Shown here one piece after another: positions 31,609-37,653 of a stretch of DNA of 64,000 bases. Where the stretch lies: assembly GCF_000002865.3 (NCBI RefSeq), contig NW_001865039.1, positions 786,791-850,790 of the forward strand. The letters run 5' to 3'. The notes beneath the pieces are model-generated. The model searched no databases and was not told the origin of the DNA. It saw nothing but the letters and a program-made list of their open reading frames with translations. Both the position numbers and the translations under genes were made by a program. Source of the DNA: Monosiga brevicollis MX1 (taxonomy: Eukaryota > Opisthokonta > Choanoflagellata > Craspedida > Salpingoecidae). How positions within the stretch are numbered: position 1 is the first letter of the stretch; each line of letters begins with the position of its first letter.

Positions 31609-33830
31609 TCAATTGGCACTGTTGGGAATGTCGCCATTTACGAGCTGCTCGGGGGTGGTAATACCAAATCGCTGCGGGCAACCACTCTGAGCAATATCCT
31701 TGCCCTGGATCTTGCCATCAACCAGGTACTCCTTCTCAATCTTGGGCTGGGCCCACAGCAGGACCTTGTCCATCATGGGTGTCTCGACCCCGCAAATCTC
31801 GGCAACACCGCGGAGTACGGCGAGACCGTGAGGCAAGTCTTCGGTGAGGTAGCGGGTGCGAAAGTTGGGCACAAACTTGCCGCCTTCCACCTCCGTGACC
31901 GGGGCCTTGAGCCCACGGAAGGCGTCATTGGTGGCGAAGATCTGTGCTGTGCTGCTGTGGTCAGAGATGACATCACCGTAAACATCGAGGAGATACACAT
32001 CAATGGGCTGCCAGCCAGCGAGGTCGGCACCGGCTTTCTTGAGGACCTCTACGGCTTGACCAATCTCGTTGGAGAGGCCATCGAGCACCGAACCCGTAAA
32101 GTCGTTGCAGTTTTGGTAAAACAATGGGGCTTCGGCCACCGGTTCGCCGTCCCAGTCATGCCAGATGCCGTAGGAGATACCCGTGTGGATGATGCAATTG
32201 GTTGGCCAAAGAGCCGAGGTGAGCATGTTGCCCTTGCACTGAAAGTCCGTCAGGTCGTGCAGCCGCGACATCTTGTCGCCAAGGAGAGCGTTGCGTTCGG
32301 GCTCGTTGGGGCGCGCGTTGATGTCAACGCGTTTCTTCTCACCAAGGAGCGAGGCTTTGCAACCATACTCGTCAAAGCGACAAGCCCACGGTAGGGAGGT
32401 GCCAGCAAACAAGGTAATGTCCCGCTCTTTGATGAGGTCGCCCAGTACATTGATGGCAATGAGATCAAAGGCGCCGGGGCCTGGAATGGCACCCACAAAG
32501 GCCCCCTTCTTCAGAAAAGGAGCAATCTGCTTGAGAATCGGCTCATGAGCAAAGGCCGGGACGATAAGAAGGATGAGATCGGCTCCTTCAATGGCCGTCT
32601 TGGGGTCTGCCGTAATGACCTTGGGTTGGCCCGTGTAGGAGGTGGTCTTTGTCGTTACGGTGACGCCACCAGCCTTATCACAGGCCTCCTTGAAGCGCTT
32701 GGCCTCGTCCTCGAAGGAGAAAAAGAGGTTGACGTTGGCGCCATTCTTGGCAAACATGCCGGCAGCAATGTGAGCCGCGTTGCCACCACCACAAACGGTG
32801 ATGGTGATGCCTTCGGCAGGTTTGGCGTCGGTCATCTTGCCCGTCGATGCGTCCGCTGCTCCTTCTACTGCTGGGGCGGAGGAGACCTCGGTCGGGGTTG
32901 GGGACTTAAAAATGGCTTGTACGTCCTTCCAGACGTCGGCAATGTCTTGACCGGCGTTGACGGTCTTGAGCTTGTCGGCAGCGCGGAAGTGCTCAACGAC
33001 GGGGCGGGACTTGGAGTGGTAGGTTTCGATGCGACCCTTGAGGGATTCCTCGTTGTCGTCGCTGCGGCCCGACGTCTTACCGCGTTCCAAACAACGGGCG
33101 ACCAGCGTCTGATCGTCGGCCTCAAAGTACAAGGCAAAGTCGCAACCGCGACCAAACTGTTAAGCACAGCGAGCGGGGGGTAGGTGGCGGGGAGTGAGAC
33201 AATGGGCCGAACAAGAACGGGAAATACGGCCAGCCACGCCATGATGAGGCGGCAGTGGGGCAACAAGGCAGAATTGATGCGAGGCAGCATGCCTTTTTCT
33301 GAAAGGCGTGAACTTGATCAAGCTCACGAGGAAAGCCGTCGAGCAGAAGCTTGACGGGACCACCGGTAGCGAGCGTGGATTGAACGGCGTCGGCAAGGAT
33401 TTCCAAGGTAATGTCGATAGGGATCAGCTTGCCCTCGGACATGAGCCGTTGCACTTCCTTGGCTCGATCCGAGTCTTGCTTGACCTCGTTGCGGAAAAGA
33501 TCCCCCGTGGAGAGGGAGGTGTAGCCAAAGTTTTCGCAAATGCGGGCACACTGTGTGCCTTTGCCGCTGCCCGGACCGCCTACCAAGGAGCGCACACAGG
33601 GTTGATGAGGCTGACACAGAGGTTGTAGCAGAGGTTGTAGCAGAGGTTGTAGCAGGGGTTGTCGCAACAACTCGCGACCGAGGGCTGTTGGGCATGTTTG
33701 GTTGTCAAGGCAGCTGGCAGTGGGTAGCGGGCGAGGGCGCACCAAGCACGAAGATGATGCTCTCCACTTGAGAAGCTTGCAGGCCACTGCCCACCTTGAC
33801 ATTGGCCGAACTGCTGCAGGTGCCACCCAT
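31609..33830 (-). CDS. Adenylate kinase - octopine dehydrogenase fusion, 3 exons, 640 aa
   Basis: Exons (minus order): 33830-33743, 33579-33293, 33156-31609; phases join exactly. The N-terminus MGGTCSSS fits an N-myristoylation signal (Gly2, Ser6) with Cys5 available for acylation. Residues about 24-208 form an AK1/UMP-CMP-type kinase: P-loop GGPGSGKGTQ at 30-39, then YTSLSTGDLFRNEV, LLLDGFPRELDQ, and lid RGKTSGRSDDNEE. A roughly 33-residue Ala/Ser/Pro/Glu linker follows. Residues about 242-640 (399 aa, the usual length) are an opine dehydrogenase with NAD loop TVCGGGNAAH, PKVITADP, VPAFAHEPI, LPWACRFDEYG, RYLTEDLPHG, and the terminal WAQPKIEKEYLVDGKIQGKD block. These correspond block by block to scallop octopine dehydrogenase. 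The His in the CIIHTG segment and the Asp in DVISDHS match its catalytic positions. Intron 2 appears to use a GC donor. The dehydrogenase part is one exon, so the fusion is not a mis-joining of neighbours within that exon. Confidence 0.9.
33621..33662. repeat. 12-bp tandem repeat in intron 1 of the fusion gene
   Basis: Three and a half copies of GGTTGTAGCAGA with one change in the last full copy. It lies inside the first intron, so it is not translated. Confidence 0.9.
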
Positions 33831-34058: not shown

Positions 34059-34080
34059 CACACACACACACACACACACA

Positions 34081-34119
<39 letters not shown>
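34059..34119. repeat. (CA)12(CT)18 compound microsatellite
   Basis: CA dinucleotides run without a break into CT dinucleotides, followed by a short A-rich segment. It lies in the divergent intergenic region. Confidence 0.95.

Positions 34120-34372: not shown

Positions 34373-34462
<90 letters not shown>
34372..34462. repeat. (AG)n microsatellite
   Basis: About 90 bp of AG/GA with one interrupting A run near the right end (about 34453). Same purine/pyrimidine class as the CT tract 250 bp upstream, in opposite orientation. Confidence 0.97.
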
Positions 34463-35888: not shown

Positions 35889-37653
35889 TCAGTTGCGACT
35901 CGCGCCTTTGGCTGAGCTCGTGGCCGAGGTTTCCACCGCCTCATTCTGCAAAAAACGATACAGCTGGTCACCCAATGTCGGTCCACCGCAGAGGTCTCGG
36001 ATCCGGTCCTGCGATGCCGTGGCCAGCTCCCGTAGACTACCAATCCCAGACATGATGCGATAGACGTTAGCTGGGGTAACCCCAGGCATGGATCGCAGCA
36101 CAGCTTCGGGCTCAGAGGCGTAGCGGCTATCGCTGAGATGGCCATCCTCCATGTCCACGCCAATGGCCGCTGCCTGCTCTCCATCCGGCTCTGCTCCGCG
36201 CCGCTTCATCTCGTAAAACAGCTGAGCAGTACTGTGGGGGCTGTTGCACCAGAAAATGCGCAGCTTGGGGAAATGTAGCGTCAGCAAAACTAGCCGTGCC
36301 AACGTGGTTTTAAACTCCAGGTCCGAGCCCAAGCTCTCATTGGCCGCCACCAGACTATAGGGCTTGCTCTCGTCTATCTCGACCAGCAAGATCGGTTTGG
36401 GATAGTGCTGCGACATTTGCAGCGCCTGGTTGTACAAACGTCCAGACTTCAGCGAGCCGATCAGGTCGGGCAGTGACTTGCGCTCGACACAAATCTCGGG
36501 ACTCAGCACGTAATCGCCCACGAGCAGGGTAACCGGCTCCACGTCAATTCCAAACTCGTGCAGGATTGACGGCAGTGACGATCGGAACTCGCGCATGTCC
36601 ACAATCACCTGCATACATGGCATCATGAGCGTCGGTGTGATACATACGCTGTTTCAGTCATGTATTGTCCCATGGCATGCCCAAACAACGTTGACAGTGC
36701 TTTCAGATGCGCACGGGTAAACAGGGCACTAACGCCACGCATACCTTGGGTCGCGTCCCAGCCGTCGCACGACGGCCACCCGCTTGCCGCGTCGAGACAT
36801 TCTGATCCTCAGGCCGCAGGGCCAGCTGTCGTTCATCCTTTTGGCGCAGGCCAAGCCGACCATCCTATTTGCATCCACCCGGCCGTCATAATAGTCAGTC
36901 CATGATGCAGGCAGGGACAGACAAGCGACAGTCGAACAGACAACCATGTCAAGGGCGACTAGGTGGACGCTTTGTCCAAATTAACTGATGCACACACCTG
37001 ATCCACAGGAAAAGCCATGCTCCGTTTTGCGCTGATCACATATGTAAAGGCTTCTTTCTCCTGTCGCAGCGAAGACAAGTATTGTTGCTCCTACTCAGAG
37101 GCAGAGGCCAAGTGCCAGTTCCAACAAGTTGTGAGTCAAAGGCCCGTGCGTGCCATGGCTCTGACAGTTGCACCAACCTGAAATGAAGTGTCCAGAGTCA
37201 GCAGGGCCACCTCGATGGGATGCGAGGCCACGTGCGCGTGCAGCTCCAGCTACACACGGGTACCATCGAAGGACAAGACCCGAACAAAAACCACGGTGTT
37301 AGACGGTGCCATCAGCCTGAAAAGAGCTCCAGAGTACTCATCGAGCACGCTTGGAAAAGACAAAGTGCAGCTGCGTGCATACCTCGCGCACAACGACAAT
37401 GTTGAGATCATAGATCAGAACGTTGTTCGGCTGCAGGTCCAACAAGAGCCGGGCCAACCGTGATCCCTGCACGCCTCCTTCTCTGTGGTAAGCATGGATA
37501 ATAACGTGGAACCCGGTTTCGCCAAACTCGCCAAAGTTGGCAGCCAGGTCTTCGTCCGGGGGCAAAGCGTAGTCTGCCCGGATTTCATCCTCCAATTCGC
37601 CTTGTGAGTCATCGTCAGCCTCTGCTTTATGGCAAAAGGAAGGTCGTGAGACG

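What the first reader, a model, noticed from the sequence alone, without database searches (positions are those of the whole stretch)
31609..33830. Adenylate kinase fused to octopine dehydrogenase, with a myristoylation-type N-terminus
One gene encodes a complete AK1-type kinase (about 24-208), a short linker and a complete octopine dehydrogenase (about 242-640). Both catalytic sets look intact. Octopine dehydrogenase regenerates NAD+ in anaerobic glycolysis and works beside arginine phosphate in molluscs; adenylate kinase buffers ATP/ADP/AMP. Joining them would place energy buffering and redox balance in one enzyme. MGGTCSSS would tether it to a membrane, perhaps the flagellum, where AK isoforms are known. 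I know of no described protein with this order, but could not search.
Basis: partly seen in the sequence, partly recalled or inferred. Interest (0 to 1): 0.8.

Follow-up and report, generated by a model that had tools for sequence, protein, structure and literature searches.

The report
Kinase fused to an opine-making enzyme
In a choanoflagellate (a single-celled cousin of animals), one gene joins an energy-balancing kinase with a membrane-anchor-type start to an enzyme that recycles NADH by making opines; the pairing recurs in a second, related sequence and is new as a combination, though both enzymes are familiar.

Summary
Three minus-strand exons (33830-33743, 33579-33293, 33156-31609) encode 640 aa: a complete AK1-like kinase (about 24-209), a 31-residue linker, and a complete PF02317 opine dehydrogenase (242-633). 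The AK half has no stop codon of its own. The species is Monosiga brevicollis: record MONBRDRAFT_19069 ('partial') equals residues 1-216 and ends inside the linker. A second protein (P0001, 613 aa, unnamed contig) has the same order at 74-77% identity, which argues against a gene-model or assembly artefact. It was the only other fusion in the 120 best rows listed by each of two protein searches. In Salpingoeca rosetta the nearest two genes lie on different contigs.

Lactate dehydrogenase is also present. The MG..S start also occurs in stand-alone AKs. AK1 versus UMP-CMP kinase is close by score; the tree and key residues favour AK1.

Best reading: the AK half gives the opine dehydrogenase a membrane address and local ATP buffering; no shared substrate, so no channelling. 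RNA continuity, acylation and activity are untested. New domain pairing of known enzymes.

The parts
33743..33830 (-). Exon 1 (88 nt): start Met, MGGTCSSS N-terminus, up to the first part of the P-loop
   Evidence: same start and sequence in P0121
33807..33830 (-). MGGTCSSS, N-myristoylation-type start with a nearby Cys (possible palmitoylation, inferred)
   Evidence: pattern (recalled) matched by window protein and by P0001 MGNCSSSN
33580..33742 (-). Intron 1, GT-AG, 163 nt
   Evidence: junction agrees with P0121
33293..33579 (-). Exon 2 (287 nt): P-loop GGPGSGKGTQ, STGDL, DGFPRELDQ
   Evidence: PF00406
33157..33292 (-). Intron 2, GC-AG, 136 nt
   Evidence: junction agrees with P0121
31609..33156 (-). 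Exon 3: end of the AK domain, linker and whole opine dehydrogenase, with stop; no intron
   Evidence: 516-residue open frame
32812..32904 (-). Linker, residues 210-240, Ala/Ser/Pro-rich, in frame; 24 residues shorter in P0001
   Evidence: weak frame preference
32833..32835 (-). Met233 in the linker; lines up with the start region of stand-alone opine dehydrogenases; P0002 (408 aa) begins here
31633..32808 (-). Opine dehydrogenase domain, residues 242-633, homologous to scallop octopine dehydrogenase 3c7a
32185..32187 (-). His449, equivalent of catalytic His212 of the scallop enzyme
31852..31854 (-). Arg560, equivalent of the NADH sensor Arg324
   Evidence: role from PMC2924402

Best explanation
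One Monosiga brevicollis gene makes a single two-enzyme protein: an AK1-like nucleoside monophosphate kinase with an acylation-type N-terminus, a flexible linker, and an NADH-dependent opine dehydrogenase (pyruvate plus an amino acid whose identity is unknown, giving an opine and NAD+). It arose when an intron-free opine dehydrogenase reading frame, with its own start codon still visible as Met233, became joined to the last exon of a stand-alone AK gene. The chief effect is likely to be targeting: the AK's lipid anchor carries the dehydrogenase to a membrane (plasma or flagellar), so that NADH oxidation and ATP/ADP/AMP equilibration sit at the same ATP-consuming site. Shown: gene structure, order, open frame, conservation in a second sequence, kept catalytic residues. 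Inferred: single translated product, acylation, location, physiological role.
For: Continuous frame and no AK stop codon. P0001 with the same order, MG..S start and KMT(D/E) junction at 74-77% identity. Catalytic His449, Asp565, Arg560 and Cys384 kept, 17 of 17 rows. AK P-loop, DGFPR and SGR.DDN residues invariant in 31 AK-family rows. AK half modelled alone at pLDDT 88.0, pTM 0.83, matching AK1 and UMP-CMP kinase structures; the dehydrogenase half of P0001 modelled with most blocks over 90, best match scallop octopine dehydrogenase. Myristoylation pattern in both fused proteins, in S. rosetta P0146 and in Mytilus P0173. The AK halves group with three stand-alone AKs including S. rosetta P0146 (100/98) and the dehydrogenase halves with P0008 (100/98). 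The paralogous dehydrogenase on C54 has at least six interruptions where the fused one has none.
Against: Public data contain the AK half as a separate 'partial' record ending in the linker (P0121) and a 408-aa protein starting at Met233 (P0002), so separate products are not excluded. Met233 has A at -3. P0001 rests on one sequence from one 1,863-base contig of unnamed source. The codon signal in the linker is weak (0.035 in frame against -0.78 and -0.27, trained on the same gene). No RNA, protein or localisation data were available. S. rosetta P0146 keeps MG..S but P0145 fails the pattern at His3 and P0139 fits only at an internal Met.
Confidence: 0.62

Rival explanations
1. Two products from one locus: the full-length fusion plus a free opine dehydrogenase made from Met233 by an internal promoter or leaky scanning, so that anchored and soluble pools coexist.
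For: Met233 is kept in P0001 (KMTE against KMTD) and lines up with the start region of stand-alone enzymes such as P0013 MSARPAEG. Only two other ATGs precede it in the spliced message, one out of frame at codon 10 and one in frame at codon 76.
Against: The conserved Met may be only the fossil of the old start. The main start also has A at -3 and G at +4. No RNA evidence for a second start.
Confidence: 0.25
2. Two separate genes wrongly read as one: a stop codon lost by sequencing or assembly error, or a missed intron, at the linker.
For: P0121 (AK, partial) and P0002 (dehydrogenase) exist as separate entries.
Against: P0001, from another source, has the same fusion in one frame. No stop or frame break lies anywhere in the linker in either sequence.
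Confidence: 0.05
3. The kinase half is a UMP-CMP kinase rather than an adenylate kinase.
For: Best PDB matches and top two Foldseek hits are human UMP-CMP kinase. TIGR01359 (UMP-CMP) 193.3 bits against TIGR01360 (AK1) 190.4 for P0121.
Against: Both scores fall below their cut-offs (207.6 and 284.1), and for P0001 the order reverses (190.5 for AK1 against 180.7). The tree places it on the AK1 side (93/88, midpoint root). STGDL Thr and PRELDQ Gln match AK1; UMP-CMP kinase P0183 has SAGDL and PRNEDN (role of these residues recalled). AK1 structures fit with TM 0.85-0.91 against 0.84-0.86 by target length.
Confidence: 0.15

Closest known systems
Octopine dehydrogenase of Pecten maximus (PDB 3c7a, 3iqd; PF02317)
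   Same: Whole-length homology over residues 242-633, 150 of 387 aligned positions identical; catalytic His, Asp, Arg sensor and Cys148 kept.
   Different: Stand-alone enzyme; guanidinium-holding Glu142 and Trp278 are Thr378 and Tyr513 here, so arginine is not an expected substrate.
Adenylate kinase 1, and acylated AK1-type isoforms (mammalian AK1 beta recalled; Mytilus P0173 MGCIASK, S. rosetta P0146 MGCNGSK held here)
   Same: Short-lid AK fold, P-loop, STGDL, PRE..Q, MG..S start.
   Different: No fused second enzyme in those proteins.
Other AK fusions: multi-AK proteins of the AK5 kind in the lists; AK7, AK8, AK9 and flagellar AKs (recalled)
   Same: An AK domain joined to another domain, often in cilia (cilia recalled).
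   Different: In the 120 rows listed in each the partner is more AK-type domains, never PF02317, except in P0001.
Opine dehydrogenase of Diplonema papillatum (PMC8611851, passages read)
   Same: A protist opine dehydrogenase of the mollusc/annelid type; the paper reports alanopine, tauropine and saccharopine and proposes NAD+ regeneration.
   Different: The paper describes a glycosome-targeting signal; the passages seen mention no AK fusion.

Membership tests
Opine dehydrogenase (PF02317) | Pfam score above cut-off and homology to a solved opine dehydrogenase over the whole length | tested here: met
   111.5 bits against 30; 3c7a, E 4.6e-79, residues 242-633
Opine dehydrogenase (PF02317) | Catalytic His-Asp pair and Arg NADH sensor | tested here: met
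   H449, D565, R560. His212 and Arg324 named in PMC2924402; Asp329 number recalled
Octopine (arginine) specificity | Glu142 and Trp278 side chains that hold the guanidinium group | tested here: not met
   T378 and Y513; Glu at position 142 in 0 of 17 rows, Trp at 278 in 3 of 17 (roles)
Adenylate kinase, AK1 type | P-loop, catalytic Arg and Asp residues, short lid | tested here: met
   G30 G31 P32 G35 K36 G37 T38, D110, R114, R156, D158, D159, R167 invariant in 31 rows; fold. His51, nearly invariant, is Ser in the window protein
Adenylate kinase, AK1 type | AMP-type residues (Thr in STGDL, Gln in PRE..Q) | tested here: met
   meaning of the residues recalled
Adenylate kinase, AK1 type | NCBIfam TIGR01360 curated cut-off | tested here: not met
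   190.4 bits (P0121) and 190.5 (P0001) against 284.1, so not filed as a strict isozyme-1 equivalog; called AK1-like
UMP-CMP kinase | NCBIfam TIGR01359 cut-off and Asn in place of Gln | tested here: not met
   193.3 against 207.6; PRELDQ
N-myristoylated protein | MG-(not EDRKHPFYW)-x-x-(STAGCN)-(not P) at the true N-terminus | tested here: met
   pattern recalled; no in-frame ATG in the 270 nt upstream, but no in-frame stop there either
N-myristoylated protein | Acyl group on Gly2 | not testable with these tools
   needs mass spectrometry or metabolic labelling

The most novel reading that the evidence does not exclude
The AK half is not only an address but an adenylate sensor: AMP/ADP binding and lid closure gate the dehydrogenase half, so that pyruvate reduction to an opine switches on at a membrane site (for example the flagellum) when local energy charge falls. 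That would be a nucleotide-gated redox enzyme in a close relative of animals.
Probability: 0.1. Interest if true: 0.78.

Novelty: new variant of a known kind. Interest (0 to 1): 0.43.

Why it matters
Gene fusions often mark proteins that work in one place. This one ties an adenylate kinase to an opine dehydrogenase in the sister group of animals, where fermentation by opines is better known from molluscs. It predicts that opine production is membrane-localised, gives a one-gene handle to test it, and shows that a gene which public data hold in two pieces should be re-annotated as one. It also makes the origin of the fusion (an intron-free dehydrogenase joined to an AK's last exon) testable across choanoflagellates.

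Tried and rejected
Opine dehydrogenase as the only pyruvate-reducing exit: considered after the first search for the LDH/MDH N-terminal family gave three loci whose motifs I read as malate dehydrogenase (motifs recalled). Rejected when the C-terminal family search added a locus on C48 with LDH motifs, matched best by L-lactate dehydrogenase B (1t2f, E 1.1e-25).

Arginine phosphate link: phosphagen kinases are present (7 matches at 5 loci) and the introduction of PMC3679164 (passage) names a phosphoarginine system in M. brevicollis. My own typing by PDB match is not clean: L024 fits two-domain arginine kinase 4rf6 best (764 bits summed over two stretches), but among one-domain chains creatine kinase (358) is ahead of arginine kinase (345); L025 favours arginine kinase (189.7 against 171.8). 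The dehydrogenase pocket argues against arginine anyway.

Retroposition: the fused dehydrogenase has no intron while its C54 paralog has at least six, but no poly(A) trace was evident below the stop (sequence printed, read by eye), so it remains an inference; plain intron loss would look the same.

The first fold of P0001 gave a low-confidence AK half (blocks 34-74) because stand-alone AKs were poorly aligned, so the AK was folded alone. pTM 0.71 does not establish a fixed arrangement of the two halves.

Full report
What is there. On the minus strand, three exons (33830-33743, 33579-33293, 33156-31609) give a 640-residue protein. Intron 1 is GT-AG, 163 nt; intron 2 is GC-AG, 136 nt. Pfam finds ADK at 28-185, NAD_Gly3P_dh_N at 244-345 (just over its cut-off) and Octopine_DH at 434-595. 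The best solved relatives are scallop octopine dehydrogenase (3c7a, residues 242-633, E 4.6e-79) and, for the kinase half, UMP-CMP kinase and AK1 with close scores (168.6 and 162.6 bits).

Which organism. The protein search returned MONBRDRAFT_19069 of Monosiga brevicollis MX1 (P0121), identical to residues 1-216 of the spliced protein and marked partial. A second M. brevicollis record, MONBRDRAFT_1409 (P0041), maps to exons on contig C54 of the same 39.5 Mb genome at 85-99% identity by segment, the lower values where matches run past exon edges (clean segments are 93-100%). The window is therefore M. brevicollis or extremely close to it. P0121 confirms both splice junctions, the GC-AG one included.

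One gene or two. Exon 3 is a single frame that carries the last part of the AK, the linker and the whole dehydrogenase; the AK has no stop of its own. Public data hold the locus in two pieces, P0121 ending in the linker and P0002 starting at Met233, both on a contig of 3,607,471 bases; whether P0002 is an annotated gene model cannot be seen, because the tool hides the source of proteins that the window itself encodes. The decisive comparison is P0001: 613 residues on an 1,863-base contig, covering 99% of the query at 74% identity by BLAST (77% in the global alignment). It has the same order, an MGNCSSS start and KMTEQAQPAKG at the place of KMTDAKPAEG; its linker is 24 residues shorter. Its frame nearly fills the contig, so it is either a spliced transcript or an intron-poor gene; the listing does not say which. 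P0001 is one sequence with one member, which is a weakness, but a chimera that reproduces this order and junction by accident is unlikely.

How rare. Among the 120 rows listed of 493 matches, and the 120 listed of 1032, only P0001 carries both PF00406 and PF02317. One search lists down to 314 bits, where a more distant fusion should still appear; one search stops at 492 bits because multi-AK proteins crowd the list. Both calls scored only the candidates sharing most words. In S. rosetta the nearest AK (P0146) and dehydrogenase (P0009) sit on contigs of different length (2.08 and 2.36 Mb), so they are separate genes. EukProt proteins P0010, P0013, P0019 and P0027, marked complete and 404-419 residues long, are dehydrogenases alone; their species are not shown.

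Trees. In a 26-row tree the dehydrogenase halves of the window and P0001 group with P0008 (100/98), inside a group with S. rosetta P0009, P0010, P0011 and P0013 (100/100). In a 21-row AK tree the two AK halves group with P0139, P0145 and S. rosetta P0146 (100/98). P0183 and other UMP-CMP kinases fall on the other side of the drawing root (supports 90/82 and 93/88), which together with the STGDL and PRE..Q residues favours AK1. NCBIfam is undecided: 193.3 bits for UMP-CMP and 190.4 for AK1, both below cut-off, with the reverse order in P0001.

Active sites. AK-family residues of the P-loop and the catalytic Arg and Asp set are invariant in 31 aligned rows; one nearly invariant His (51) is Ser here. 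The AK half folds alone with mean pLDDT 88.0 and matches AK1 and UMP-CMP kinase structures. In the dehydrogenase, His449, Asp565, Arg560 and Cys384 stand for scallop His212, Asp329, Arg324 and Cys148 (329 is recalled, the others are named in PMC2924402). That paper gives Glu142 and Trp278 as the side chains that hold the guanidinium group; here they are Thr378 and Tyr513. Glu is absent at that position in all 17 rows compared, and Trp is present in 3. So 'opine dehydrogenase' is safe and 'octopine' is not.

Surroundings. The genome search with PF02317 found two loci, this one and C54; a third, weak relative lies on C22 (35-37% over about 90 residues). PF00406 found seven further matches at four other loci, so this is not the only NMP kinase; with P0121 as query only the window gene was found. 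Phosphagen kinases are present, and PMC3679164 (introduction, passage) names a phosphoarginine system in M. brevicollis. A lactate dehydrogenase gene is present on C48. The upstream neighbour on the same strand is an ERCC4-domain (XPF-like) frame at 35889-36626. Nothing in the neighbourhood points to the function of the fusion.

Mechanism. The two reactions (2 ADP = ATP + AMP; pyruvate + amino acid + NADH = opine + NAD+) share no substrate, so channelling is not expected. The AK brings an acylation-type N-terminus, a feature also seen in stand-alone AKs: 15 of the 119 AK hits that were held match the pattern, the window's own record among them. The simplest consequence of the fusion is that the dehydrogenase gains that address. 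Near an ATP consumer, AK would regenerate ATP from ADP while the dehydrogenase keeps glycolytic NAD+ available. Steps shown: architecture, conservation, catalytic residues. Steps inferred: acylation, location, physiology. In Diplonema, opines made by an opine dehydrogenase have been detected and linked to NAD+ regeneration under low oxygen (PMC8611851, passages), which makes the role plausible for a protist.

Literature. Searches for octopine dehydrogenase with adenylate kinase and fusion, opine dehydrogenase with choanoflagellate, and opine or octopine dehydrogenase with Monosiga returned no paper. One search (any two of three terms) listed 15 of 492, none on this fusion. One search returned 5 papers, none on it by title and abstract start. 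Only open-licence PMC papers are held, so subscription work may exist.

Verdict. A real, conserved and apparently undescribed domain combination of two familiar enzymes. It is interesting for choanoflagellate energy metabolism and testable with one gene.

Noticed in passing
P0008 (383 aa, unnamed 1,567-base contig): The C-terminal part of an opine dehydrogenase (MDKVLL...LVKGEI) runs in frame straight into the N-terminal part of another (AKPAKGLTVTVCGGG...): a tandem dehydrogenase or a permuted assembly. Its domain groups with the two fused ones.
   Followed up: partly
P0011 (439 aa, contig of 3,644 bases): Opine dehydrogenase with a 40-residue Ala/Pro/Lys-rich N-terminal extension that could be the tail of another fusion linker; the contig could not be fetched.
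   Followed up: no
P0031 (800 aa): Opine dehydrogenase followed by a PTB (IRS-type) domain in a EukProt prediction: another possible fusion of this enzyme, or a merged gene model.
   Followed up: no
L026 and L027 (G000:C56:116839-118659): Two near-identical phosphagen kinase domains in one long open frame, with close one-domain copies elsewhere (L025, L028).
   Followed up: partly
G000:C54:1602786-1604565: Paralogous opine dehydrogenase gene (MONBRDRAFT_1409) with at least six interruptions, in contrast to the intron-free fused copy.
   Followed up: partly
window 33617-33666: A 12-base tandem repeat (4.2 copies, CAGAGGTTGTAG) inside intron 1.
   Followed up: no
window 34059-34119 and 34377-34462: Long CA/CT and GA runs upstream of the gene.
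   Followed up: no
window 35889-36626: ERCC4-domain (XPF-like) reading frame on the minus strand.
   Followed up: no
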